A stretch of 64,000 nucleotides of DNA from Chroococcidiopsis sp. CCMEE 29 (lineage in GTDB: Bacteria; Cyanobacteriota; Cyanobacteriia; Cyanobacteriales; Chroococcidiopsidaceae). This document shows, one piece after another, positions 22,327-36,850 of the stretch. The translations under genes were made by a program, and so were the position numbers. How positions within the stretch are numbered: position 1 is the stretch's first letter; every line of letters starts with the position of its first letter. A model generated the notes under the pieces. It was not told the origin of the DNA and did not search any database. It was given only the letters and a program-made list of their open reading frames with translations. The DNA lies in contig NZ_CP083761.1 of NCBI RefSeq assembly GCF_023558375.1, forward strand, positions 1,353,001 through 1,417,000. Direction: 5' to 3'.

Positions 22327-25247
22327 GCAATCGCCTGCCGCCCATTTCCGGTGAGTGGATTGAGCGCAGCCAGCGCATTGATTTTACCTTTGAAGGAAGT
22401 TGCTTTTGGGGCTATGGCGGAGATACGGTTACGAGTGCGCTGTGGGCATCTGGGCAACGAGTGCTGGGGCGTAGTTTCAAATACCATCGTCCCCGCGGAA
22501 TTTTGAGTCTGGCAAATCACGATATCAATGCCTTGATGCAAGATGGGCAGAAGCTGAATATCCGAGCCGATGTCACCCCTTTAGAAGCTGGGATGTCTCT
22601 CTCGGCGGTGAATACAAATGGCGGAGTGATGGGCGATCGCAACAGCATCCTGAACTTTTTCTCCCCGTTTCTCCCAGTTGGGTTTTACTACAAAGCCTTT
22701 CATAATAAACGGCTGTTTCCCTTCTGGGAGCGGATGATTCGCAAGCTTAGCGGATTAGGCAAAGTAGATGTTTCTACACCGCATATTCGCACCGCAAAAC
22801 AGTATGACTTTTGTGATGTGCTGGTGATTGGCGCAGGTGTTGGGGGATTGTCGGCAGCGTTAGCCGCAGCCGATGCTGGGGCAGATGTTGTGATTGTGGA
22901 TGAAAATGCGCGGGCAGGTGGCTCCGGTGGCTATCAACGGGGTGGTGAATGGTTGACAGAGCAGACGAACGAACTGGTGAAAGCGGTTGAAAACCACGAT
23001 CACATCCGTCTCTACACCGAAACGGTAGCTGCTGCCTATTACGCGGATAACTGGATTCCATTAGTTGATCGAGATCGCCTCACCAAAATGCGAGCAAAAG
23101 CCGTGGTTATGGCAAACGGTGCTTATGAACAGCCTGCAGTGTTTCGCAACAACGATTTACCGGGAGTGATGTTAGCCTCTGCTGCACAACGGTTAATTTA
23201 TCGCTATGCTGTTAAACCCATGAATCGCGCAGTCGTGTTGACTGCCAACAGTGATGGTTATCGGGCTGCCTTAGATTTAGCCCAACATGGTGTTGAGGTG
23301 AAGGCGATCGTGGATCTACGCCAGAGCTATACAACTACTCTCATCACTCAAGCATTGCAGACACGTGGGATTCCCATCCTTACCAATCATTGTGTTTATG
23401 AAGCAAGGACTAATCCGGCAAGTGATGGCGTTTCCAGTGCCGTGATTTGTCCGCTCGATGCCAATGGCAAACCACAAACTGAATTTAAACAAGCGATTGC
23501 CTGTGATGGCATTGCCATGAGTGTCGGCTGGGCACCCGCAGCAAACTTGCTGTATCAAGCCGGAACGAAGATGCGCTTTGATGACCACTTGCAGCAGTTC
23601 GTTCCCGATCGGTTGGCTCCGGGTGTATTTGCCTGTGGGCGCGTCAATGGGGTGTATGAGTTTGAGCAAAAATTGCGGGATGGCCGTCGGGCAGGATTAG
23701 AGGCTGTCGCTGTTCTAGGATTGGCACAAGTGGAGATTGTTGTTGCATCCATCTCAGAATCCCCCTCGCATGGGTGGGCGATCGTGGAGCATCCGGCAGG
23801 CAAAAACTTTGTAGACTTCGATGAAGATCTTCAGTTCAAAGACTTCCCGAATGCAGCTCAGGAAGGATTTGACAATATTGAATTGCTCAAGCGATTTACA
23901 ACCGTAGGCATGGGACCGAGCCAGGGTAAGCATTCCAATATGAATGCGCTGCGAATTCTGGCGCGAATCACCAATCAATCTCCCGGTGAAGTGGGCACAA
24001 CCACTGCTCGGCCGTTCTTCCATCCGGTTCCCTTATCGCACTTAGCCGGACGGGGATTCACCCCAGAACGGCACACTCCCTTGCATAGTCGTCATGCTGC
24101 CTTCGGTGCTCAGTTCATGCTGGCAGGGGTATGGCGACGACCCGAGTACTACACCCAACCCGGAAAAAGCCGCGAAGACTGTATTCGTTCTGAAGTCGAA
24201 GCGGTTCGGACTCGTGTTGGATTGATTGATGTTGGGACGCTGGGAAAATTAGAATTACGCGGGGCGGGCGCTGCCGAATTTTTAGAGCGAGTTTACACCG
24301 GACGCTACAGCAATTTGAAAGTTGGGATGTCGCGCTATGCGCTGATGCTGGACGAGGCAGGCGTAGTGATTGACGATGGTGTGATTGCGCGACTCGGAGC
24401 CGAGTATTTCTATTTCACAACGACGACTTCTGGTGCAGCCGCAATTTATCGAGAACTATCGCGGCTGAATATCATGTGGCAGATGGATTGCGGACTGGTG
24501 AATGTAACCGGAGCGCGATCGGCAATTAACCTTGCCGGACCTTATGCCCGTGATGTCTTAGCGAAGCTAACAGATTGCGATCTTTCCAGCCCTGCCTTTC
24601 CCTATCTGGCTGTACGGAAGGCAGTAGTCGCAGATATTCCTGCCATCTTAATGCGGGTCGGTTTTGTAGGCGAGTGGGGCTACGAAATTCACGTCGCAGC
24701 GGAATCAGCGATCGCCCTCTGGGATGCTTTTTGGGAGGCAGGTGCAGCTTATGGGATTGCGCCCTTTGGTGTGGAAGCCCAGCGAGTTTTGCGGCTGGAA
24801 AAAGGACACCTGATTGTGGGGCAAGATACCGATGGCTTGACAACTCCGAAAGAAGCCAGCTTGGGGTGGGCAGTCAAACTGGATAAACCCTTCTTCATTG
24901 GTCAACGCAGTCTGCAAGCCATTGCTAAACAACTCATCAAGCAAACTCTAGTCGGTTTCATGCTCGATCCAGCCTTTCAGGGAACGCCACCCCAGGAGGG
25001 TCATTTAATCATTGAGGGAAATGAGATTGCAGGTCGCATTACCAGTATTGCCTTCAGCCCAACTCTGAAACGGTATATCGGGCTCGCCTATGTCAAACCA
25101 GAACTGGCAGATATCGGTAACAACCTTTCGATTCGCTTGTCCGATCGCTCACTGATCGCAGCAACCGTCAGTCCTACACCATTCTATGACCCTGGCAACC
25201 AACGTCAGAAGGAAACGGTGATGCAACGCGAGGAGATTATTGTATGA
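22323..25247 (+). CDS. soxA: Sarcosine oxidase alpha-subunit-like protein
   Basis: The 974-residue protein has an N-terminal ferredoxin-like domain without an obvious 2Fe-2S cysteine set (SCFWGYGGDTVTSALWASG), an NAD/FAD Rossmann domain (DVLVIGAGVGGLSAALAAA, then ANGAYEQPAVFRNNDLPG), and a C-terminal aminomethyltransferase-like domain that binds tetrahydrofolate (VRTRVGLIDVGTLGKLELRG; VGFVGEWGYEIHVAAE). This is the full layout of SoxA or MgdC. It receives the methyl group as 5,10-methylene-THF in the known enzymes. The gene is intact, but its SoxB partner upstream is broken. Confidence 0.93.
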   Translation: MSNRLPPISGEWIERSQRIDFTFEGSCFWGYGGDTVTSALWASGQRVLGRSFKYHRPRGILSLANHDINALMQDGQKLNIRADVTPLEAGMSLSAVNTNGGVMGDRNSILNFFSPFLPVGFYYKAFHNKRLFPFWERMIRKLSGLGKVDVSTPHIRTAKQYDFCDVLVIGAGVGGLSAALAAADAGADVVIVDENARAGGSGGYQRGGEWLTEQTNELVKAVENHDHIRLYTETVAAAYYADNWIPLVDRDRLTKMRAKAVVMANGAYEQPAVFRNNDLPGVMLASAAQRLIYRYAVKPMNRAVVLTANSDGYRAALDLAQHGVEVKAIVDLRQSYTTTLITQALQTRGIPILTNHCVYEARTNPASDGVSSAVICPLDANGKPQTEFKQAIACDGIAMSVGWAPAANLLYQAGTKMRFDDHLQQFVPDRLAPGVFACGRVNGVYEFEQKLRDGRRAGLEAVAVLGLAQVEIVVASISESPSHGWAIVEHPAGKNFVDFDEDLQFKDFPNAAQEGFDNIELLKRFTTVGMGPSQGKHSNMNALRILARITNQSPGEVGTTTARPFFHPVPLSHLAGRGFTPERHTPLHSRHAAFGAQFMLAGVWRRPEYYTQPGKSREDCIRSEVEAVRTRVGLIDVGTLGKLELRGAGAAEFLERVYTGRYSNLKVGMSRYALMLDEAGVVIDDGVIARLGAEYFYFTTTTSGAAAIYRELSRLNIMWQMDCGLVNVTGARSAINLAGPYARDVLAKLTDCDLSSPAFPYLAVRKAVVADIPAILMRVGFVGEWGYEIHVAAESAIALWDAFWEAGAAYGIAPFGVEAQRVLRLEKGHLIVGQDTDGLTTPKEASLGWAVKLDKPFFIGQRSLQAIAKQLIKQTLVGFMLDPAFQGTPPQEGHLIIEGNEIAGRITSIAFSPTLKRYIGLAYVKPELADIGNNLSIRLSDRSLIAATVSPTPFYDPGNQRQKETVMQREEIIV

Positions 25248-25894
25248 ATACGCCTCTTCGTCTGAGTCCGATTTACGATTCACTCCAGTCAGTCAACGGC
25301 TCGTGGCGTGAGATCAACGGCATGCCATCTCTAGTAGCACTGCCAGCAGATCGGCATCGTATCACTCATTTAGGAATTGCAGATCTATCCTTTTTAACCC
25401 GCTTTGGTGTGAAAGGAGCGAATGCAGCCGAGTGGTTAGCCAATCAGGGAATGCCTATTCCTGATCGCCCTAATACCTGGCATTGTTTACCGGAAAGCGG
25501 CATGATTGCCCGGTTGGGACTGACAGAATTTCTGATTGAGGATAGTGTCAACAGCGCGATCGCTCCCCAGTTAGCAACCGCCTGTCAGTCTCCGGCCAAA
25601 GTTTACCCGATCTTACGATCAGATCTGGCGCTGGGGTTAGTGGGCGATCACGTCAATCACCTTTTACGCCAAACCTGTAGCTTTAACTTTCAGGCGTTAT
25701 CGCTTGGCGATCGTCCGGTTGTTCTGACTTCCATGATTGGGGTAGCCGTGACGGTGATTCTGGGTGAACGCAACGGAGAATCTTTCTACCGGATTTGGTG
25801 TGATGGCACATTTGGTACCTATTTTTGGCAAACCCTGATTGAGATTGCCACCCAGTTAGGAGGTGGCGTAATAGGCACAGAATCAGTTTTGTGA
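25244..25894 (+). CDS. soxG: Sarcosine oxidase gamma-subunit-like protein
   Basis: The 216-residue protein overlaps the soxA stop by 4 bp. It has the weakly conserved SoxG pattern, which resembles the GcvT fold: [19 protein letters not shown], then [12 protein letters not shown], and [20 protein letters not shown]. The identification rests on operon position as well as on sequence. Confidence 0.85.
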
Positions 25895-26820
25895 CCAAGC
25901 TACTGTATTCGAGGAACGTAAACCAGGAGCAAACCGAATGAATTTAGCAGCAGCAAAAACATTTCTCGAATCGCATCAAGTTAAGTTTGTGCTGGCGCAA
26001 TTTGTCGATATTCATGGAGTTGCCAAAACTAAAGCCGTACCCGTTTCTCACTTTGAAGATATTCTGCATCCGGGAGCCGGATTCGCCGGATTTGCGGTGT
26101 GGGGATTGGGTATGGACCCGCACAGCCCAGATTACATGGCAGTCGGGGATCTCTCGACCTTATCACTCGTCCCCTGGATGCCCGGATTTGCTCGGATTGT
26201 TTGTGTCGGTCACGTTAAAGGTGAACCTTACCCTTACGATGCTCGCTATGTCTTGATGCAGCAGATTGAGCGGCTGAAGCAGCGAGGATGGACACTCAAT
26301 ACCGGAGTCGAGCCAGAATTTGCCTTGCTCCGTAAAGATGAACAGGGGCAGATTTACCCGTTTGATGCCACCGATACTTTAGAGAAACCCTGCTATGACT
26401 TCCGGGGTTTGTCTCGCAGCGCGGTTTTTTTAGAAAAACTCGTTACCTATTTGCAAACGGTTGGCTTTGACATTTATCAAATCGACCACGAAGATGCAAA
26501 CGGGCAGTTTGAGATTAACTACACCTACACTGATTGCCTCACGACTGCCGATCGCTACATCTTCTTCAAAATGGCAGCGTCAGAAATTGCCAAAGAACTG
26601 GGGCTAATTTGCTCATTCATGCCGAAACCGTTTGCCAACCGCACGGGAACGGGAATGCATATTCACATGTCAATTTCCGATGGCAACTCTAATCTGTTCG
26701 CTGACAACACCGACTCACGCCATTTGGGACTCTCCAAACTAGCGTATCATTTTCTCGGTGGCTTACTTGCCCATGCAGGCGCACTCACTGCCATCTGTGC
26801 CCCAACCATCAATTCCTATA

Positions 26821-27721
26821 GAACCCATTTGAGATCTTGAGGATGCCAGATTAAACTAGAGCAAAAATGGTATACTCCAGCAGCCTGAGCGACCAAGAAT
26901 GGAAACTCATCGAGCCACTTTTGCCGCAAAAGAAGCAGACTAGACCACCAGTGTGGAGCAAACGTCAGATCCTCGATGGCATCTTCTACCAGCTCAAAAA
27001 CGGCTGCAATTGGTGTGACTTACCCAGAGACCTGCCGCCTTACTCAACGGTTTTCTGGTACTACAAACAGTGGCGAGAAACTGGAGTCTTAGACGAGATT
27101 ATGGACAAGCTCCACGGCAAAGTGCGCGAACAAGCCCAAAAAAACCGAAGTGGACAACCCTAATTATGATCGACTCTCAGGCAGTTAAGAACACCTGTAA
27201 TGCTAGCATTGCGTCCAAGGGTTTTTGTCATTACAAAGCAACGAATGGCATCAAACGGCATCTGGCTGTCGATACGCTGGGGTTTCCCTTGTTCACTCAC
27301 TGTACCAAAGCCAATGTCACTGACGACCAGGGACTGATTGAGATGCGATCGCAAAATATCAACTATTTCAAAGCCAAACCCGTGAATATTCCCAAGATTA
27401 CAATTCTGCTAGACCACGGTTATCATCCCGAGACAATCACCCAAGCGCTGCAAGAAATTTATCCCCACCTGACCAAAATTCGGTTTGAGCGCTCCCCAAA
27501 ACCTTCAAAAATTGAAAAGGTAGCTCAGGGCACATCTGGATTTGTTCCAGTCGCGACCCGATGGGTGGTTGAACGCTCGAATGCTTGGATGGAACGCTGC
27601 AAGAGTCTGGTGAAAAACTTTGAGTGGACTTTAGACAATGCTAGGGCAAAACTCAATCTTTGCTTTATCAGGCTAATGCTTAAGCGCTTAGCCGCAGCCT
27701 AAAAAGATCTCAAATGGGTTC
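26821..27721 (+). mobile_element. IS5-family element (901 bp) in the gmaS-like gene
   Basis: The ends GAACCCATTTGAGATCTT and complement are flanked by TATA on both sides (26817-26820 and 27722-27725). Removing one TATA restores the NSYKRL glutamine synthetase motif, so the duplication is 4 bp. Confidence 0.88.
26867..27702 (+). CDS. IS5-family transposase, two frames joined by a -1 shift
   Basis: The first frame (26867-27163) has SLSDQEWKLIEPLLPQKKQ and CDLPRDLPPYSTVFWYYKQW. The second has the catalytic blocks MIDSQAVKNTC, LLDHGYHPETIT and RWVVERSNAWMERCKSL. The junction lies at CAA AAA AAC C near 27140, an A AAA AAC heptamer. A -1 shift there gives KKPKWTTLIMIDSQ with no break. The element has no other lesions and may be active by frameshifting. 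Confidence 0.85.
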
Positions 27722-27754
27722 TATAAGCGCCTTGTGGTGGGACGATCGCTCATA

Positions 27755-28879
27755 CTAAATCGCCATCAAAGAGGTAAGATTGTAACATTCGTAAAGATGT
27801 TCCAGTCCCTTGAAGCTATGGCACGTGTCAGTCGAGTTCTGCCCCACTTGTCTGAAGCTGAAATCCGAGAAAAAATTCGCACCACTAGCAACTTTAGACG
27901 ACAACAAAAATGGCGGATTGTCTACAATGCCCTAGTTGACCCTAGACCCGCCGCCGAGATTGCTAAACATGTTGGTAGCACCGTCCGCATGGTGCATCGC
28001 GTTGTCAGTGAGTACAACCGCAACGGCACAAGCGCGATTGAAACTCCTGGTTCAGGTGGCAGACGGCGCAGTTACTTAAGCTTAGAGCAGGAGCAAACGC
28101 TGCTCAACCAACTCACCCCGGAGGCAAAAGCGGGTAGACTTACGACTCGAGCCAAGATTAAGCAAGCCTTGGAACGACAAGTGGGACACAAGGTTCATAA
28201 AAGCACGGTCTACCGACTGCTGCAACGGTATCAGTGGGGTAAGCGTAAACCTCGACCAGCGCATCCCAAAGCTGACCCCGACGAGCAAGAGAGCTTCAAA
28301 ACCACCTTTGAGCAGCAAGTACAATCATTAGTCGAGCAACGATCCCGCGCTGATACTCGCCCCGTCCTAGTCATGGCGGCTGATCAAGGGCGCTTTGGTC
28401 GCACAGGTGAACTGAGTGCGTGTTGGTGTCCGCCGGGATTTCGCCCCACCATAGCTCGTCAACAGGTCAGGCAATACATCTATGCCTTTGTCGCTGTTGC
28501 ACCACTGTTGGGCATGATGAGTTGTTTAGTGCTACCCTATGCCAACACCGTAATGATGAATCTATTTTTGCAGCAAGTTTCGATTGAGTTTGCAGACTAC
28601 TTCATCATCCTGCAAGTTGATCGGGCTGCTTGACATCGAGCCAAGCAGTTGCAGGTGCCGGAGAACCTTCGATTGCTACCGCAACCTGCTTATGCACCTG
28701 AATTGATGCCAGTTGAGCATGTGTGGGATGACATTCGAGAGCAGCATTTTGACAACCGCATCTTCAAATCGTTGGATTTGGTGGAAGACACATTATGTGG
28801 TGCGTTGAAAGAACTGATTGACGAGCCAGAACGATTACAGTCAATGACTTTTTTCCCGCATATAAGAATTACCGTTTAG
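27755..28879 (+). mobile_element. IS630-family element (1,125 bp) that clips gmaS and an AraC gene
   Basis: The left end (CTAAATCGCC) follows a TA in the gmaS-like gene. The right end, read inward, is CTAAACGGTAAT, similar to the left. It is not followed by TA and borders the end of an AraC reading frame, so a deletion next to the IS has removed the rest of gmaS and the 3' end of the AraC gene. Confidence 0.75.
27797..28879 (+). pseudogene. IS630-family transposase with one nonsense codon
   Basis: The frame has an HTH (PAAEIAKHVGSTVRMVHRVV), KVHKSTVYRLLQRYQWGKRK, and catalytic segments VMAADQGRFG, IILQVDRAA and the Glu in APELMPVEHVWDDIR. A TGA at 28631-28633 sits where the family has Trp (AAWHRAKQL). 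The frame stays open on both sides, so this is a single G-to-A type change that inactivates the protein between the second Asp and the Glu. Confidence 0.85.
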
Positions 28880-29639
28880 AACGCAACTTGGTATGAGTGT
28901 GATATTGATGCGGGGATACTCCGGTTGATTGCTTGAATTGCCGTGCGAAATAATAGGGACTCATACCGACTTGTGCTGCGATGTCTGCCAGGGTGATGTC
29001 GATTTCTAGGTGCTCCTGAATGTAATCAATTGCCTGTTGCAGCTTATACGGAGGCAATCCTAGTGTGTGCTGTGCTTGTACACGTGGGGTGGCAGAATGA
29101 TGTTTGAGCAGATGCGCCACCAAGACGTTCGTGAGCGAGTCCACATAGAGATGTCCGCTCGGATGCTCGGCTAATAGTTCCATTAATAGCGCTTGCCCTA
29201 GCTGCTCGGTCATCGGGTCGGGCACGCTGAACTGATGGACGAGTTCGACCTGATTAGAATCGATTTCCAGCACTTGCTCCGCAATGATATCGACAAAGGC
29301 TGGATCAAGCCGCAAATGCAGCACATTCACGTTGTTTTGCCAATGCCATTCGGTTGCCCGACCTGCTGGCGTGAGGATCATATTGCCTTTAACGACTCTT
29401 GCCTGCTGCGTTCGACCCTCGAACTGTTGAGTTAACGTGTAGGGGCTACCAAAGTTCAAGGTGACTAAGTGCTGCTGAAGTTGGGGTGAAATCAAGCGAT
29501 TTGGGCGATGATGGTACTGTTGGGCAACGATGCCCGTCCAGTTATACGGCTGACTCGAAACGGTTGGTTGCTCAGGCAGAACCTCGAAAAGCTCGGCGGT
29601 ACTAGTAAATTCTGGGGTTGTAGATTCCGTTTCGGTCAC
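28869..29639 (-). CDS. AraC-family regulator, C-terminus lost
   Basis: The 256-residue protein has an AraC N-terminal ligand-binding region and the first HTH of the DNA-binding domain (ITLADIAAQVGMSPYYFARQ, then FKQSTGVSPHQY). After HQY the family continues with a linker helix and a second HTH of about 50 residues. Here the frame ends HTHTKLRSKR, and the last codons are encoded by the end of the neighbouring IS630. DNA binding is thus probably weak or lost. The N-terminal effector part is intact. Confidence 0.85.
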   Translation of the reverse strand: MTETESTTPEFTSTAELFEVLPEQPTVSSQPYNWTGIVAQQYHHRPNRLISPQLQQHLVTLNFGSPYTLTQQFEGRTQQARVVKGNMILTPAGRATEWHWQNNVNVLHLRLDPAFVDIIAEQVLEIDSNQVELVHQFSVPDPMTEQLGQALLMELLAEHPSGHLYVDSLTNVLVAHLLKHHSATPRVQAQHTLGLPPYKLQQAIDYIQEHLEIDITLADIAAQVGMSPYYFARQFKQSTGVSPHQYHTHTKLRSKR

Positions 29640-29803
29640 AGCACTTGCCTCAACTTATCTCTGGGTCTTCAGACCCATTTCTAAAATTAGATTGAATGCG
29701 TGCAACAGAATTGCAATCTAGATAAAGACAGAGATTTATCAAAACAGTAAGATTGTACTCCCCCAACCATTAGATACGCCCATGTGTGGCTGTGTGTATC
29801 GCT

Positions 29804-30367
29804 TTACTCTAACAACCAACCAAATATCAACCCTACACTTAAATTCAACTCATTAGCAAATGAGGGGACTGGAAGTGTCTGCTCTGACTGGTCAAACACT
29901 TCTGGTTGCTGCTTTGGAAGATACACAAAAACAGTTTGCTCATCGGGGTCAATCAACCAACCCATCTGAGTTCCATGATTAAGACAATGCAGAATGTTTT
30001 TGGTTACTTTCGTTTGACTTTGATCGGGTGAGAGGATTTCAATAGTCCAGTCAGGAGCGATTGGAAAGGTATTAGCAACCTCACCATTTTGGTCACGGGG
30101 AACCCTCTTCCAAGTAAACACAGACACATCTGGAACCGTTGAACGCCCACCAAACGTACAACGTAGCTCTGAAAACGCTCGTGCAATCTGTTGAGGTTTA
30201 AGACTCACATTGATAGTAGTAGAAAACTCGGTTTGAATCGTGCTGTGCTTTCCCTGTGGCATTGGTTTCTGAATAATCTGCCCATCGACATACTCGTTAG
30301 CAGGCTTAGTTTCTGGCAGTTTCAGAAACTCCTCCAAGGTGATGGGTTTAGATGGAGACTGTACCAT
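29804..30367 (-). CDS. Uma2-family protein, probable integron cassette gene
   Basis: The 187-residue protein has the Uma2 order: ITLEEFLKLPETKPANEYVDG, the catalytic Asp in STVPDVSVF, and APDWTIEILSPDQSQTKVTKN with the Glu-x-Ser and Lys. It resembles a PD-(D/E)XK nuclease but has no proven activity. The start at MVQSPSKPITLEEF (30367) fits the family, while a frame from 30445 runs into the attC-like site upstream. It lies directly downstream (minus direction) of that site, as expected for a cassette gene. Confidence 0.85.
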   Translation of the reverse strand: MVQSPSKPITLEEFLKLPETKPANEYVDGQIIQKPMPQGKHSTIQTEFSTTINVSLKPQQIARAFSELRCTFGGRSTVPDVSVFTWKRVPRDQNGEVANTFPIAPDWTIEILSPDQSQTKVTKNILHCLNHGTQMGWLIDPDEQTVFVYLPKQQPEVFDQSEQTLPVPSFANELNLSVGLIFGWLLE

Positions 30368-30426
30368 TTGAACTCTCTTATGACGGGAGTTAGATAGGGC
30401 TTGTACCAATTCTAGGAGATAAGCAC

Positions 30427-30510
30427 GTCTAACGACCAAGCTCACCGGACGCAGATGACATTTGTACCGCCGATAACCTCAATAGGTTCTGGTGCAGCGC
30501 AATGTTATGC
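30427..30510 (-). other. attC-like integron recombination site 1
   Basis: Read on the minus strand, the site begins GCATAAC and ends GTTAGAC, the second matching the GTTRRRY core exactly. The inner arms GCGCTGCACCAGA and TCCGGTGAGCTTG pair with one extrahelical G, the feature that sets strand choice in attC sites. The site is 84 bp and lies 72 bp after the stop of the YunG-like gene. Confidence 0.7.
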
Positions 30511-30582
30511 GGCTGCCTCACGGCTACTTTTCACTTCACCTAAGGATCTCAACTTGGTACAGTGTTCATCTGCTAACTTGAC

Positions 30583-30942
30583 TTAGCACTTGATCAATCG
30601 CTTGTAGAGATAAGCGTATTGAGCTTGATTAGTATCAGCAAACGCTTCCTCTCGACTAGAAGGAAGATCGAGATAATCAGGTAAACTTTGGAATTGATCC
30701 ATCGTTAGATCGTATATTTTGCCATCAACACGATTGTAAAAGTGCCATCTTCCATCCACAGGCGTTTTAAGAATCTCGCCGCCAAATTGATCTTGAATGA
30801 CGATCACCGTGACACTACATTGACCACACGCAGGATTCTGCTCAGTCCACAAGGAGCTAGATCCGATAGACCAGCATTGCTTGAGTAAGATTTTCACAAT
30901 TTGCTCGTCAAATCTCTGTATTGCAAATCCCATATGCATCAA
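30583..30942 (-). CDS. YunG-like protein, probable integron cassette gene
   Basis: The 119-residue protein has the pattern WTEQNPACGQCSVTVIVIQD, then QFGGEILKTPVDGRWHFYNR and DLTMDQF. This resembles proteins annotated as YunG-like, whose role is unknown; the Cys in GQCSVT and the following His could be part of a papain-like site, which is only a suggestion. A start at MGFAIQRFDEQ (30933) is also possible. The gene lies between two attC-like sites in the same orientation. Confidence 0.65.
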   Translation of the reverse strand: MMHMGFAIQRFDEQIVKILLKQCWSIGSSSLWTEQNPACGQCSVTVIVIQDQFGGEILKTPVDGRWHFYNRVDGKIYDLTMDQFQSLPDYLDLPSSREEAFADTNQAQYAYLYKRLIKC

Positions 30943-31037
30943 CGCTCTGCTACTTATTGCTCACTTCTGCGATAGCACTTTAGCCTTGAATTTCAACTAA
31001 TAGCTCATCAACCACACCCTCACTGATTACCAAAGCC

Positions 31038-31124
31038 ATATAACGATGCAGTTGAGCGGCTGCAAGTAGCTTTTGCATCTACACCATTGGTTCTCAGCGG
31101 TCCGCTCCAACCGAATTGTTAGGT
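31038..31124 (-). other. attC-like integron recombination site 2
   Basis: Read on the minus strand the site starts ACCTAAC (a perfect RYYYAAC) and ends GTTATAT. The arms CGGTTGGAGCGG and CCGCTCAACTG pair with a single extrahelical G at the same relative place as in site 1. It is 87 bp and lies 95 bp upstream of the YunG-like start. The cassette that once preceded it has been replaced by IS1 sequence from 31257. Confidence 0.65.
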
Positions 31125-31284
31125 GGCATTTCACTAGAGTTGTCGGGAAATAAAACAAAAAATCCTTGAAAGCCTTACATAGCAAGTGTTTTCATTGATT
31201 TTGAAAAAAATCGTTATACCCTTTGTGTAGCAGAACTTTCAGCCATTTTTCTCGTTGGTAGTGTTATAGATTTATTGTTTGTCC

Positions 31285-31794
31285 TTAAATTGGTAGACCA
31301 AATTCATAGCGATTGATAAATAATCCAATGACCCCTTCGTGCATCACCTCTGTCTTGGAAAAGCAAATTGTCTTACGGGCTAGTCGCTTGATGCGCGTTC
31401 TCAATCTTAGATTTTTCCGTTCGATTCTCTAAGTTTTGCGTTTACCTACTTCATGAATTTCTGCTGGCAAATGCCGTTCGTAAGCTCCCCAGCCATCAGT
31501 ACAGAACCGTCTAATTCCAAACGGTTCTAGCAAATTTTTCAGTTGAAGAAATACCTCATCTTTTCGGCGACCAAAGACATATGCTAGTACTTTACCAGTG
31601 CTACGGTCAATAGCGTGCCAGAGCCAGCGTGGGGTTTTCTTACTGCTGACATAGCTCTACATTTCATCAAGTTCAGATTCCTCAATGCCAGATTCTTCTG
31701 CCTCTTCGACTCGGATGATATCTACTTCAATCTGCTCCGGTTTTAATTGTTGTAACAGTTTCTGATTAACTGGTTGAAGATGTCTGAGTTTTTT
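31285..31794 (-). pseudogene. IS1 insB-like transposase with two amber codons
   Basis: The DDE-like IS1 domain can be followed through WLWHAIDRSTGKVLAYV, DEVFLQLKNLLEPFG, and RRFCTDGWGAYERHLPAE to RYEFGLPI. TAG codons replace Trp in ELDEM-SYV (near 31660) and Gln in KRKT-RIERK (near 31427). An A8 tract marks the insA-insB overlap. Confidence 0.8.
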
Positions 31795-32056
31795 TTAATT
31801 CCTGAATCACCGTAGTAGGGCTAACATGTAAAACTCGTGCAATGTCTCGAACACCACTACCGTTAAGAGTCATCTCCACAATTTGCTGTTTTACTTGTCT
31901 GCTTCTTTCCGGATAAGTTTGATTCAGAATGAAAGTGCGATAAGGGCAGTCTAGATTTTGACAACGGTAGCGTTGCTTTCCCTCTGCTGATTTCCCATTC
32001 TTAATCACCTCTGTGCTATGACAGTGTGGGCATTGCACGGGGAGCCAAACAGCCAT
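31766..32056 (-). CDS. IS1 insA-like protein
   Basis: The 96-residue protein has the zinc-finger part (QCPHCHSTEVIKNGKSAEGK, then QRYRCQNLDC) and an HTH (NGSGVRDIARVLHVSPTTVI). Alone it would act as an IS1 repressor. It is intact but its insB partner is not. Confidence 0.85.
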   Translation of the reverse strand: MAVWLPVQCPHCHSTEVIKNGKSAEGKQRYRCQNLDCPYRTFILNQTYPERSRQVKQQIVEMTLNGSGVRDIARVLHVSPTTVIQELKKTQTSSTS

Positions 32057-32146
32057 AATGCTTAACCAAACAACTTCTGTTAACTTCCTTTTCCTGTTCC
32101 TTATTATAGTTGAACACCAGATCTAGAACACCACCGATAGTAGATG

Positions 32147-33049
32147 AGACTTCTTGCAAAAGGTTATTGAGTTAGCTGGATTTCATAGTTGTACAAACCA
32201 GCAATCAAGTTAAAGCGTAGACCAAAACGCTTTCTGCGATTTCTATAGCGGTCAGATAAAATCTTAAAAATCGTCAGAGAGCGATTAACATGCTCACCAA
32301 CAACTCTAAGTTTGGCTAACTGCCGATTCAAGTGCTTGTCTTCGACACTGAGACTGGCTTTCCTCGGCTTTTTCTTGGGTATACGGCTATTGGGATGAAT
32401 CTTAGCAATGCCTTGATACCCTTTATCTGCCAAACACTCCACAGCGGTTAGCATTTTCACCTGGCTGGTTTTGAATAAATGGAAATCATGTTCGCGTCCC
32501 TTGCCATGTGCGGTACAAACGATCTGTTTTGTCAATTGGTCTACCACTACTTGGGACTTGAGTGTATGCTGTTTCTTTTTGCCGCTGTAGTAGCGTTTCT
32601 GTTTTTTTGAGGACGTTCAATCGGACTTTCAGTCACGTCAACTACCACTACCTCAATGGTATGCTCTGGCTCCAGGAGTTTCTTCTTTCCTGGGAGGCTG
32701 AATTTCCCTGAGCTAATCAGGGTGTCTTCTACACTGCGAATGATGCGGTAGGCTGTGGACTCATAAACGCCCCAAGTTTGAGCAATATGAAAATAAGTGC
32801 GGTACTCCCGTAGGTATTCTAGGGTCATCAATACTTGGTCTTCCAGGCTAAGTTTGCTGGGTCTACCTGGTTTCAATTGTTGCTTTGCTTGCTGCATCAC
32901 TATTACGATTTGGTTAAAGGTTTCAGGGTGCACGCCGCATAGCCGTTTAAATTCTTCTGGCTTGAGATGCTTGATTCGTTCGTAGGTCATAGAATTTCCT
33001 CCTCTAACCTACTACATGCCATCTCTTCCTACCCTTTTGCAAGAAGTCT
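32147..33049 (-). mobile_element. IS5-family (ISL2-like) element, 903 bp
   Basis: The ends AGACTTCTTGCAAAAGG and complement are flanked by ATG on both sides (32144-32146 and 33050-33052), a 3-bp duplication. It starts 12 bp from the end of the decayed IS1. Confidence 0.82.
32164..32990 (-). CDS. IS5-family transposase, two frames with a -1 site
   Basis: The first frame (32547-32990) has an HTH_Tnp_4-type part (EEFKRLCGVHPETFNQIV, LSLEDQVLMTLEYLREYRTY) and the first Asp in VVVVDVTESPIERPQK. The second frame (32164-32547) has GREHDFHLFK, CLADKGYQGI and RLVVGEHVNR-like text (KLRVVGEHVNRSLTIFK). The frames join at CAA AAA AAA CAG, where a -1 shift yields KKQKRYYSGKKKQHTLKSQ. The related element at 55745 has the same slippery string, so the site is probably programmed. 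Confidence 0.85.
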
Positions 33050-33437
33050 ATGGATTCTGATGACGATGCTACCGAAGGTTGTGTTACAAAAACTTCTTAA
33101 GTTCAGAAAATCCCTCTTAGCGTAAAACCCCAACTCTGGCAATCAGTTCAGGCTTATTCCTGTTTTTTGTTCCATTACTTATCGATACCTTAGTTGAAAG
33201 CAATCGGAAGAATGATATTTAACCTAATTAACAATTAATCGTTCAAATCAACTACCATTTTTTAAAGCCTTTCATATCGTTAAAATCTTTTGCAAGAGAT
33301 ATACTATTTTGTCTAATTTAGCTTATCTAAATTATCTATTTTCAGGTGCATATCTCTATCACTTATACTCGATGCAAAACTGAGATATATCCGCGAAGGT
33401 TATCTGAGGTGAGTAATCATTAGCTTAGAGAGGTTTT
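33050..33437. other. Spacer without a recognisable gene
   Basis: The 388 bp between the IS5-type element and the split membrane-protein gene are AT-rich, with no long frame, repeat or hairpin that I can support. Confidence 0.5.
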
Positions 33438-33472
33438 GTGAAAAGATTATTCTTATCAAAAAGGTACTGTTT

Positions 33473-34777
33473 CTTAGTGATGCAGAAAACTTAGACGGTC
33501 TCATTGTGAGAATCTAACCACCTTCGAGAATTCAATCCGGCAGTCTAAGGCATCTCGTTTACGGTGAGAAGCACAGGCAGGAGGCGGATTATTCTTGGGC
33601 AGTGCCAGGAGTTTGGGCAGGGAGAGTCGCGCATAGCAGAGTCGCGCTAGTTCGCGTAGACCCAGTTGCAGAAAACTCAAGCCCCGTTCCCCATGCCAGT
33701 CGAGACGGGAACGTTCTCCCATTTGCACCAGCATCATGCCGAGCATGAGGGCTATCAAGGAGGCACAATCCAGCAGCATGAATAAGCAGGTTAGAGCTTG
33801 GGCATTGCGTAAGCCGGAGTGCAACACCCCGAAGGCAGCCGACTTATAGTCCTTAAAGTGAGGTTCAATCCCACCAAATCGCTTACCATAGAGTGCAAAG
33901 CTTTGTAGGGAAGGTGGTTGGTCAGATAACACTGCCCAGGGGTCTTTGGTAGCTGGCACCGTAGCGGTGACCAGATGGCAACCGATTCCATCCAAGACCT
34001 GCACGTTCTCAAACAAATAGGCCTGCTGTTCGGGGGGCACGAGTTGCTCGACCGATTGAGTGCACCCGTTTGCCAACGTCACCTGCAAGTTCGACTTTAC
34101 CCGAATTGCCCACGACCATTGCTGTTGCTGTAACCAGTGGATCAAGTTGCCATGCTCAAAGCCTCGGTCGGCCAGTAAGCTCACTTGAGCGTGGGACGGT
34201 AATACTCGTTTAGCACACTCCAACACACTCTGATACTGCTCAAAACCGACGGTCGCACTGCCATGTTCGAGCACCACTTGAGCCAGAGTGAAGGAACGTC
34301 CTCCCCAGACGAAGCATACTTCAATCAGACAAAATTGATCCCACAGCATACTGGTATCGAGGGTCAGCAACACCGACTCTCCAGCAAATGCCGACAGGAC
34401 ATGGCGCAGTATCGGCTCATAGAACCGCTCGGCATTGATCTGCTGATTGTGCAGGAAGTAGCTTAACCGTTCCCAGTGAGCACGCGCTTGGCAGTCCCGA
34501 TGGCTCAAATAGGGAATCCATTTCCCCAGCACCGCACTGCCCGATTGCAAAATGGCAGCCAAGATTTCAGAAAATACTTGCAGATGTCGTTGGTCAATCG
34601 GGTGCACCCATTGACGCAGTTGGTCTTGCAGTTGACGATATAACAGGGGTGTTTCCATGAGATTGGCTTTGAGTTGGGGAACTTAAGCCTCTCATGAAAT
34701 GCCCCCTTTAAGCTATCTCAGTCTCATTTAAGACTCACCCTATACCATGCCTTTCAGGACTTTTCTGCACCACTAAG
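33473..34777 (-). mobile_element. IS4-family element (1,305 bp)
   Basis: The ends CTTAGTGATGCAGAAAA and (inverted) CTTAGTGGTGCAGAAAA are flanked by a perfect 10-bp duplication GGTACTGTTT (33463-33472 and 34778-34787). A relative lies at 53180-54485. Confidence 0.92.
33501..34658 (-). CDS. IS4-family transposase, intact
   Basis: The 385-residue protein has the N-terminal part RQLQDQLRQWVHPIDQRHLQ, the first Asp in LLTLDTSMLWDQFCLIEV, the second in SLLADRGFEHG, and the Glu region RFGGIEPHFKDYKSAAFGV, which fits the IS4 Y-(2)-R-(3)-E-(6)-K signature loosely. No frame change is visible, in contrast to the second copy. Confidence 0.9.
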   Translation of the reverse strand: METPLLYRQLQDQLRQWVHPIDQRHLQVFSEILAAILQSGSAVLGKWIPYLSHRDCQARAHWERLSYFLHNQQINAERFYEPILRHVLSAFAGESVLLTLDTSMLWDQFCLIEVCFVWGGRSFTLAQVVLEHGSATVGFEQYQSVLECAKRVLPSHAQVSLLADRGFEHGNLIHWLQQQQWSWAIRVKSNLQVTLANGCTQSVEQLVPPEQQAYLFENVQVLDGIGCHLVTATVPATKDPWAVLSDQPPSLQSFALYGKRFGGIEPHFKDYKSAAFGVLHSGLRNAQALTCLFMLLDCASLIALMLGMMLVQMGERSRLDWHGERGLSFLQLGLRELARLCYARLSLPKLLALPKNNPPPACASHRKRDALDCRIEFSKVVRFSQ

Positions 34778-35213
34778 GGTACTGTTTAAAGCATTCTAAT
34801 CTACTCAAATGTTCTAGTAGTGTTTTTGCTTTGGTAGGTGGTAATTTACTGGCATCAAATATAAATACTAGTGAGTTTGGGTTTTTGTTTTTGGCATTTA
34901 GTTCAAGTCAAATGCTTGTAGCTAGTATCTTAGAGCGTGATAAGCTCATGATTTTCTATTCAGCTTCACTCTTTTTATTTGTTGATTGCTTGGGAGTGTA
35001 TAGGTGGATACTAACTTAATGTTGACTCATTTCACCCATTAGCTTTTTGCTCAATTTATAAAAATATTGGTGCATAAGCAAATTGTTATTAGATGCTCAA
35101 CATCAACCCGTGACAGTTAATAAATAATCCGCTCGCTAAGTTATGCATTTCCTTAGTTTGAAAACCTATTTAACAATACTGGAAACAACAATATATAGTC
35201 TGAGGAGCGTTCA

Positions 35214-35609
35214 ATGGATATCCATATTCGTCCAATGAGGCAAGAAGATGTTGAAATATGTGGGCTGATATGTTACCAGGCTTTTAAAAACAGTGCTGAC
35301 TGTCATAACTTTCGCCCAGATCAGCCGTCTCTAGAATTCAGTATTCAGTTGGCGCAATCTTGCTTCGCTAACCCACAGATATTCAGCATCGTTGCCGAGA
35401 GTAACGGCAAAATTATCGGCTCTAACTATCTGTCGGAATATGACATTGTTCGGGCTGTTGGTCCGCTTGCTATTGACCCAAATGTTCAATCAGAGGGCGC
35501 GGGTAGAGAATTGATGAAAGTAGTTATTAAACGCGCCATACATAGCAAAAGTATTCGTTTAGTTCAAAACGCTTGGGAGCATAACAAATCAGGATGTTTT
35601 GTAGTATAG
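35214..35609 (+). pseudogene. GNAT N-acetyltransferase, 3' truncated
   Basis: The frame starts MDIHIRPMRQEDVEICGLIC and has the acetyl-CoA loop in GPLAIDPNVQSEGAGRELMK. After IRLVQNAWEHNKSG the family would continue with ALYxxLGF and 60-70 more residues. Here it ends CFVV, so the C-terminal part of the fold is missing. The 278 bp that follow contain nothing I can identify. The substrate is unknown. Confidence 0.7.
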
Positions 35610-35887
35610 AGGCAGAGAAGCAAAAGTTATTGAGAATAATCAACGGAAAATTGGGCTTTTTACACTTATTTTCTCAGTAATTAGCCTTTAAAGTATTACG
35701 AATGTGACAAGAACAGCTCGATTTGTTACGCTCCCATTGAGCACTTGAGTTGATAATACCGTTTGCTTAGCAATCGACGAAAGGTGGATCTCGATTCTAA
35801 CTTTCGTTGAGGCAGGATTCGAGACGTTCTTCAGATGCTTATCCCTAGCAAAATTCTTACGATGAGTTCATTGCTTGACTTGATGAT

Positions 35888-36850
35888 GTGAACCATAACT
35901 CAACCGCTTTAGCTCCTATGAGTAAACAGAACCCGGCAATTGCTGCATCCTCTTCTATAGATGCGTCTAGTACATCAATCCCGATAAAAGCAGCTCAAGT
36001 AGAACTTGTCGAAGACTTGACCCACGATGAAGCACGCGATCGCTCACAGTTAGAGTTGAGGGTAGGGCAAGCATTCTATCAGGCAGGTAAAGCACTAGCC
36101 CAACTGCGGCAGCGACGGCTGTATCGTTCAACCCACAGGACGTTTGAGGCTTACTGCCAAGATAGATTTGGGTTCACTCGCCGTTACAGCGATTATTTGA
36201 TTCGTGGTGCGGTAGTCGTAGAAAACTTGCAACAAACGAGAACGATTCATTCTCAAAATCAGTTGAACGAACAGAAGGAAACGAATGAGAATCTCAGAAC
36301 GATGCCGGCTGCCATCCTGCCTACTAAGTTAGAGCAAATAAAGCCTTTAGCCAACCTCAAGCCCCAGGAGCAGCAGCAAGTCTGGAACAAAGCTGTAGCA
36401 AAAGCCAATGGCAAAGTCCCTTCTGGTCGAATTGTTAGAGGAATTGTTGAGCAGCTAAACCAAAAGTCCTCAGTGTCTACCAACAGTGTGTTTCAAGCGG
36501 GTGATGTATTTATTCTGGTTAGACTAGCAGGTAAGGAAAGAAAATATAACGGGTGTTGGGCGATCGCAGTAGAGCAAAGCGAATATGCAGTAATTGTTGA
36601 CGTACACAATACAACTCTTACTGTAAAACTAAAAAACTTGAACAAGATTGATTTGTTCAAAGCCCAGCAGCAGTTACCGCAGATTTTGCAGCGGATGAGA
36701 CGACTACACGCGGTCGGTATCTTGGATCGAGGAGCAGACAACGTTCTAGAAGATTTAGCAAAGCAGACTGATTTAACTCCCGTGGAAGAAGGTCTGTTGT
36801 CTTGGCTAGAGAAATACTACAAAGTCGATGCACAAGCAAGCGAATCGTAA
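35888..36850 (+). CDS. Plasmid-type conserved cyanobacterial protein with an HTH-like region
   Basis: I know no function for this 320-residue protein. Residues near 65-115 (QAFYQAGKALAQLRQRRLYR, then HRTFEAYCQDRFGFTRRYSDY) resemble the DUF3102/ParB-like regions of plasmid and phage proteins and could bind DNA. A Gln-rich linker follows. The C-terminal half has AGDVFILVRLAGKERKYNGC and VEEGLLSWLEKYYKVDAQ. A decayed copy of its last 45 residues lies at 49840-49973. The start may be the second Met (35918). Confidence 0.6.
   Translation: MNHNSTALAPMSKQNPAIAASSSIDASSTSIPIKAAQVELVEDLTHDEARDRSQLELRVGQAFYQAGKALAQLRQRRLYRSTHRTFEAYCQDRFGFTRRYSDYLIRGAVVVENLQQTRTIHSQNQLNEQKETNENLRTMPAAILPTKLEQIKPLANLKPQEQQQVWNKAVAKANGKVPSGRIVRGIVEQLNQKSSVSTNSVFQAGDVFILVRLAGKERKYNGCWAIAVEQSEYAVIVDVHNTTLTVKLKNLNKIDLFKAQQQLPQILQRMRRLHAVGILDRGADNVLEDLAKQTDLTPVEEGLLSWLEKYYKVDAQASES

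What the first reader, a model, noticed from the sequence alone, without database searches (positions are those of the whole stretch)
30427..31124. Two attC-like sites flank a YunG-like gene: an integrase-less cassette array
Both sites read in the minus direction, with 7-bp boxes at the ends (GCATAAC...GTTAGAC and ACCTAAC...GTTATAT), inner arms that pair, and one extrahelical G at the same place. Each lies where a cassette model expects: site 2 - YunG-like gene - site 1 - Uma2 gene, all in the same orientation. No integrase is in the window. This would be a CALIN-type cluster in a cyanobacterium. The cassette before site 2 was overwritten by an IS1.
Basis: partly seen in the sequence, partly recalled or inferred. 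Interest (0 to 1): 0.7.

Follow-up and report, generated by a model that had tools for sequence, protein, structure and literature searches.

The report
Integron gene cassettes lacking an integrase
A cyanobacterial chromosome carries a small, genuine set of integron gene cassettes (genes tagged with hairpin recombination sites) whose matching integrase has decayed; this is a solid example of a known kind of element.

Summary
Two attC sites lie at 30427-30510 and 31038-31124, both reading on the minus strand, one on each side of a YunG-family gene. A covariance model built from 14 sites in other cyanobacterial genomes finds these two stretches and nothing else in the 64-kb window (69.7 and 50.0 bits). 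A second model, from Gemmatimonadota and gammaproteobacterial sites, also finds only these two (29.4 and 20.3 bits).

The genome holds 49 attC matches at E<=1. Two cassettes exist in two near-identical copies (99.5% and 99.3%), with identity starting, and for one also ending, at attC R' boxes; one of these is on both replicons. That is the footprint of integrase-made movement. No intact intI was found in the genome, only two short fossils. A YunG relative in a cyanobacterium of another family also sits between attC sites.

Cyanobacterial integrons and CALINs are already described, so this is a new member of a known kind. Open: how cassettes moved recently in a genome whose own integrase is wrecked; an integrase supplied from outside is my likeliest answer.

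The parts
   Evidence: model R1 69.7 bits, E 5e-19; model R2 29.4 bits, E 9.3e-6; four similar stretches elsewhere in the genome at E <= 4.5e-5
   Evidence: model R1 50.0 bits, E 6.4e-13; model R2 20.3 bits, E 0.0029
30433..31043 (-). one cassette unit of 611 bp, from the expected cut in R' of site 2 (G|TT, recalled) to the cut in R' of site 1: YunG-like gene plus site 1
   Evidence: sequence; same gene-between-attC layout in G448, L122
30583..30939 (-). cassette gene of the YunG family (118 aa from ATG); stop 72 bp before R'' of site 1
   Evidence: PF24585 120.1 bits against cut-off 27
29804..30370 (-). Uma2-family gene (188 aa from ATG), next downstream of site 1; probably the following cassette gene, its own attC missing
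   Evidence: PF05685 136.7 bits; a relative lies between attC sites in G637, L165
31257..32135 (-). IS1-family copy (InsA ORF 31766-32056) next to site 2, where the preceding cassette gene would lie
   Evidence: InsA domains 44.4 and 41.8 bits; ends GGTAGTG and CACCACC read by eye from the sequence, left end also the start of a 74% match to another copy in the genome; no flanking duplication seen

Best explanation
It is a CALIN: a remnant integron cassette array of two attC sites without an integrase. Each gene plus the attC behind it was once a circular cassette inserted by an integron integrase (IntI), which recombines the folded bottom strand of attC at the G|TT of the R' box (recalled mechanism). 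The 611-bp unit 30433-31043 is the cassette of the YunG-like gene. Uma2 is the likely next cassette, its attC lost. The cassette before site 2 is gone, with an IS1 in its place.

The genome's own integrases have decayed to two fossils, so the array is not expected to be mobile in cis. Its sites could still be used by an IntI arriving on a plasmid or from incoming DNA.

Shown: site identity, cassette geometry, no intI match over the cut-off in the genome, footprints of past cassette movement elsewhere in the genome. Inferred: that these two particular sites still work, and that integrase in trans moved cassettes recently.
For: Two attC models, neither trained on this genome, find exactly these two sites in the window. 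Across the genome, 34 of 42 sites have a same-strand ORF of at least 80 aa ending just before R''; the opposite reading gives 12 of 42 and random positions 5.0 +/- 2.1, with a maximum of 14 in 2000 trials.

A BrnTA cassette (420 bp, 99.5%) and a GNAT cassette (689 bp, 99.3%, chromosome and 673-kb contig) are duplicated. Identity starts at R' in both and also ends at R' in the GNAT case; the alignments stop there.

A YunG relative lies between attC sites in G448, and a Uma2 relative between attC sites near an intI remnant in G637.

No TIGR02249 match reaches the cut-off (best 61.6 of 265 bits). There are two intI fossils: 41 aa with the box II Arg changed to Cys, and 31 aa with stops.

In 386 cyanobacterial genomes, attC matches go with intI: 20 of 22 intI genomes against 66 of 364 others, Fisher p 2e-12.
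Against: Single-strand folding energies are ordinary for three of the four strands. R boxes pair at only 5 of 7 positions in each site. The consensus fold of six sites of this genome recovers the R and L pairing but its covariation term is slightly unfavourable (+0.28). No gene precedes site 2. No attC follows Uma2. YunG relatives in G553 and G558 have no R1 match in the 12 and 8 kb held, and the 15 loci show one weak 45-base match only. The R1 seeds were chosen with my own pairing scan, so R1 is not blind to pairing. R2 is weak: in five other loci of this genome it recovers 10 of the 22 sites that R1 finds there. Only 2 or 3 of 11 fetched Uma2 relatives lie by an attC, and Uma2 genes come in several copies per genome.
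Confidence: 0.94

Rival explanations
1. The sites are copies of a dispersed palindromic repeat (a REP or MITE-like element) that is unrelated to integrons and resembles attC by chance.
For: There are 49 matches spread over both contigs, many of them single, and IS copies are frequent around them.
Against: Arms differ in sequence but keep pairing and the extra base (the sites were picked for pairing). Sites follow genes in one orientation, 34 of 42. They co-occur with intI across the phylum. One duplication runs from R' box to R' box and another starts at R', genes included. A model made mainly from a Gemmatimonadota integron recognises them.
Confidence: 0.03
2. (Origin only.) The sites are attC, but they reached this locus by off-target insertion of cassettes into the chromosome (attG-type insertion) rather than as the rest of a resident integron.
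For: Many attC in this genome are single or in pairs far from the intI fossils. The copy of the GNAT cassette on the 673-kb contig has no attC match on its upstream side. Such insertion has been reported (Loot 2024, seen only as cited in PMC11023631 and PMC12901181).
Against: No empty site could be shown for the window. Of window ORFs of 90 aa or more, only Uma2 matched the 11 loci around Uma2 relatives at 40% identity or more. IS copies beside site 2 may hide a larger array or an integrase.
Confidence: 0.35
3. (Origin only.) The array was moved here as a piece of a larger integron by IS-mediated rearrangement.
For: IS1, IS5-like and IS4-like copies are stacked right beside site 2, and the IS1 lacks a flanking duplication. 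A seven-site array with an intI fossil lies elsewhere.
Against: Among the 21 other attC loci compared, only one shares a stretch of 110 bp or more with window 24001-36000, and that is the IS1.
Confidence: 0.25

Closest known systems
CALIN (cluster of attC sites lacking an integron integrase), as defined in IntegronFinder 2.0 (PMC9024848, passages)
   Same: Two attC sites 527 bp apart in one orientation, with a gene between them and no integrase found; meets the two-site minimum.
   Different: Very short; next to stacked IS copies; one flanking gene (Uma2) without its own attC.
Cyanobacterial integrons (G005, G636, G637 of the same family; G185 and others of the phylum)
   Same: Same attC type, same layout of genes and sites; intI and the array in divergent orientation in G185.
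   Different: No intI match over the cut-off in this genome; relatives range from full-length to broken intI.
Gemmatirosa kalamazoonensis plasmid integron (NZ_CP007129.1)
   Same: attC with pairing arms, the extra base and R boxes of the same plan; R1 finds its sites and a model made mainly from them finds the window's.
   Different: A large array beside a full-length integrase match; its sites are longer and more alike than those here.
Kovacikia minuta CCNUW1 plasmid pB integron (NZ_CP083584.1)
   Same: Cyanobacterial attC sites; one of them (L151:5959-6047) has arms like the window's site 1.
   Different: Plasmid-borne, with an annotated integron integrase matched over its full length.

Membership tests
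attC site | R'' and R' boxes (RYYYAAC...GTTRRRY, recalled consensus) | tested here: met
   AAC and GTT cores intact in both sites; one departure from consensus in one R box of each site
attC site | L''/L' arms that pair, with an extrahelical base on the L'' side and a second one 6-8 nt on (PMC2727003, passages) | tested here: met
   site 2 fully, site 1 with one A.C mismatch (second base read by eye). The extra base is G on the coding strand, so C on the bottom strand, where the sites described in that paper have G; the paper reports that its identity is not essential
attC site | score above background with a covariance model of attC sites | tested here: met
   models R1 and R2 built here; the published HattCI and IntegronFinder models were not available
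attC site | lies just downstream of a gene in the same orientation | tested here: met
   YunG stop 72 bp before site 1; site 2 has no gene left before it; genome-wide 34 of 42
attC site | bottom strand is bound and recombined by IntI | not testable with these tools
   no experiment possible; duplicated cassettes show past recombination at other sites of this genome
CALIN | at least two attC sites clustered, without integron integrase | tested here: met
   two sites 527 bp apart; no intI match in the window and none over the cut-off in the genome
complete integron | intact intI next to the array | tested here: not met
   best TIGR02249 match 61.6 bits against cut-off 265; only two fossils. An attI site was not looked for

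The most novel reading that the evidence does not exclude
In this cyanobacterial family, integron cassettes behave as a shared pool that outlives the integrases. Resident intI genes break again and again while cassettes keep moving within and between replicons, driven by integrases that visit on plasmids (or, less likely, by another recombinase). In this genome the integrase is reduced to scraps, but two cassettes were copied recently.
Probability: 0.3. Interest if true: 0.55.

Novelty: new member of a known kind. Interest (0 to 1): 0.4.

Why it matters
It shows that part of the flexible gene content of this cyanobacterium is organised as integron cassettes that ordinary annotation could miss, because the integrase is gone. 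All 14 high-quality genomes of the family, this one included, carry attC matches at E<=1e-6, while 7 of 19 have an intI match over the cut-off, 4 of them full-length without stops. The family is therefore a good natural setting to ask how cassettes move and persist without a resident integrase. It also puts two little-understood protein families, YunG and Uma2, in the cassette pool. It does not change what is known about integrons in principle.

Tried and rejected
Rfam search of the region found nothing; I believe Rfam has no attC model (recalled), so this says nothing. Folding energies alone were uninformative. Of the 15 YunG loci, one had an R1 match, a 45-base weak hit that I do not count as attC (E 0.068). 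The best TIGR02249 hit (C2:616486, 61.6 bits) matches the profile at 75-182 and 239-299 but not between, where the fossil at C1:111465 lies (181-210), so I do not count it as intI. Comparison of window proteins with 11 loci around Uma2 relatives, to find an empty site or a conserved flank, matched only Uma2. A PDB sequence search with the YunG protein gave no match. The promoter scan found one site, fewer than shuffles give on average. A defence-gene scan of YunG gave nothing; Uma2 matched only candidate models PDC-S03. A literature search for YunG or Uma2 with integrons showed nothing relevant in the 20 of 50 papers listed.

Rows dropped: R1 was built from 14 of the 22 hits printed, picked by eye for the L-box pattern, so the pairing counts are biased upward. 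R2 used 12 of 25 printed Gemmatirosa hits and 1 of 5 Thiodictyon hits. The 42 sites are 41 of the 49 plus one seen only; the simple caller misplaces the bulge in some. One search scored 150 of 1417 candidates, and one search scored at most 11 per genome with stricter filters, so counts are lower bounds. For one search I copied the genome handles from the listings and took the two draws of 386 as the same set.

Full report
What was checked. The boxes, the pairing arms and the extra G are all present. Site 2 pairs fully in its inner arms; site 1 has one A.C mismatch. Each site has one R box that departs by one base from the consensus as I recall it, and 5 of 7 R positions pair. A second unpaired base, A on the coding strand and so T on the bottom strand, follows the first by 7 nt in both sites (read by eye). 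The literature describes a conserved T 6 to 8 nt after the first extrahelical base (PMC2727003, passages read).

Is it more than chance? I fetched the surroundings of intI matches in other cyanobacterial genomes, picked 14 attC-like sites there by eye from 22 scan hits and built model R1. None of the 14 comes from this genome; one comes from G005, of the same family. R1 finds in the window only the two stretches: 69.7 and 50.0 bits on the minus strand, 23.3 and 15.5 on the plus strand. To test this across phyla I built R2 from 12 sites of the Gemmatirosa kalamazoonensis plasmid integron and one of Candidatus Thiodictyon. R2 again finds only the two, at 29.4 and 20.3 bits. R2 is the weaker model: in five other loci of this genome it recovers 10 of the 22 sites that R1 finds there. 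Folding energy alone gives weak support. The consensus fold of six sites of this genome shows the R and L helices, with a slightly unfavourable covariation term.

The genome. The window is C1:1353001-1417000 of a 6.39-Mb genome in two contigs, of 5.72 Mb and 673 kb. R1 finds 49 matches at E<=1, 46 of them at E<=3.2e-4. The largest array has seven sites on one strand at C1:2427139-2436401. Others have four (C1:63179-67274 and C1:3093706-3101459) or two, and many are single. In 34 of 42 sites an ORF of at least 80 aa on the same strand ends within -110 to +35 bases of R''. The opposite reading gives 12 of 42, and random positions 5.0 +/- 2.1, with a maximum of 14 in 2000 trials. Genes before attC sites that I named by Pfam include BrnT and BrnA, a PIN protein beside a weak Phd match below its cut-off, and GNAT, GST, GFA, ABM, APH-type kinase and DUF4440 proteins.

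Footprints of movement. A BrnTA cassette is found at C1:2433205-2433624 and again at C1:4155889-4156308, 99.5% identical over 420 bp. A GNAT cassette is found on the large contig (L032:7183-7871) and on the 673-kb contig (L127:15089-15777), 99.3% identical over 689 bp. The two attC before the BrnTA copies differ, and identity begins at the R' box. The GNAT identity begins and ends inside the R' boxes of the copy on the large contig. I read this as what IntI leaves and transposition does not. On the 673-kb contig no attC match was found directly upstream of the GNAT cassette. The BrnTA copy in L031 is cut short within brnA.

The integrase. No match reaches the TIGR02249 cut-off; the best is 61.6 of 265 bits. 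Two fossils exist. One is 41 aa at C1:2428850-2428972, between the first and second sites of the seven-site array, with the Arg of the HTxRHSFATHLL motif read as Cys. The other is 31 aa at C1:111465-111557 with stop codons, covering the ALERKYP segment. Across 386 cyanobacterial genomes, 22 have intI over the cut-off and 86 have attC matches at E<=1e-6. 20 of the 22 are among the 86, Fisher p 2e-12, and 49 of the 86 have no intI match at 1e-25. In the family, 16 of 19 genomes have attC matches (14 of 14 high-quality ones). Seven of 19 have an intI match over the cut-off; in 4 of these it is full-length without stops, in 3 it holds a stop or is split, and further broken copies occur. Ten of the 16 attC genomes have no intI over the cut-off. 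Loss of integrase with survival of cassettes therefore looks common here, though some of these assemblies are fragmented.

The window's own cassettes. The YunG-like protein matches PF24585 at 120.1 bits and the next gene matches Uma2 at 136.7 bits. YunG matches occur in 4 of 378 class genomes, this one included. In one, G448 of another family, the gene lies between attC matches at L122:1333-1419 (21.3 bits) and 1882-1968 (60.1 bits), beside a ParE-like toxin gene. In the other two no attC match was found in the 12 and 8 kb held. A Uma2 relative in G637 lies between attC matches of 49.1 and 28.7 bits, with an intI remnant (53.2 bits) about 1.4 kb beyond the first. In G636 a relative follows the last attC of an array whose intI is broken. 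Of 11 fetched loci with Uma2 relatives, 4 hold any R1 match, and in 2 or 3 it is close to the gene. In the window no attC follows Uma2, so its cassette status is inferred. Beyond site 2 an IS1 begins 132 bp away, with no ORF of 50 aa or more ending between and no target duplication seen, followed by IS5-like and IS4-like copies (family names recalled).

How it works. By established knowledge, IntI binds the folded bottom strand of attC and cuts at R'; cassettes leave as circles and re-enter at attI, at other attC, or at off-target sites. The literature states that CALIN cassettes can still be excised or captured by IntI in trans (PMC9668308, passages read), and three origins of CALINs have been proposed, including loss of intI and off-target insertion (PMC8618304, passages read). 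The fossils here favour loss of intI for the genome as a whole. For the window alone I cannot separate resident remnant, off-target insertion and IS-borne transfer. The contrast between very reduced intI fossils and 99% identical cassette copies suggests a visiting integrase. The integron on a Kovacikia minuta plasmid shows that such a source exists in cyanobacteria. The age of the fossils and of the copies was not measured.

Known or new. Integrons in Cyanobacteria were reported by 2008 (PMC2426708, passages), and a Cyanobacteria-specific attC model exists (PMC8352920, passage). CALINs are a standard class (PMC9024848, passages). My searches listed no paper whose title is devoted to cyanobacterial cassette clusters, but the listings were capped and the library lacks most subscription journals. 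The finding is correct and ordinary in kind.

Noticed in passing
L030:1326-3222 (G000 C1:2425326-2427222): An AAA ATPase plus a DUF4276-like gene, matching the candidate defence pair HEC-01A/HEC-01B (533 and 228 bits), ends 53 bp before an attC match of 47.6 bits whose R' box is degenerate: a two-gene defence candidate that may be an integron cassette.
   Followed up: partly
42 attC sites of G000, incl. window 30427-31124: The first extrahelical base is called G on the coding strand in 32 of 42 sites (a simple caller), so C on the bottom strand; the sites described in PMC2727003 have G on the bottom strand. Gemmatirosa sites look the same as here (by eye).
   Followed up: partly
L151 (Kovacikia minuta CCNUW1 plasmid pB, NZ_CP083584.1): A 58.5-kb cyanobacterial plasmid with an annotated integron integrase and five attC matches (35 to 74 bits): a plasmid-borne integron that could supply integrase in trans.
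   Followed up: partly
L127:15089-15777 (C2:67088-67776): The GNAT cassette copy on the 673-kb contig has no attC match on its upstream side; the copy on the large contig does. It may be an off-target insertion.
   Followed up: partly
L164:6105-6773 (G636): A broken intI in several pieces at the head of a three-site array that ends in a Uma2 gene.
   Followed up: partly
window 25938-26867: An ORF that looks like a glutamine synthetase (by eye, no search) stops just before a transposase-like ORF at 26867.
   Followed up: no
window 31257-34777: Three insertion sequences (IS1, IS5-like, IS4-like by eye) stacked close together next to site 2.
   Followed up: partly
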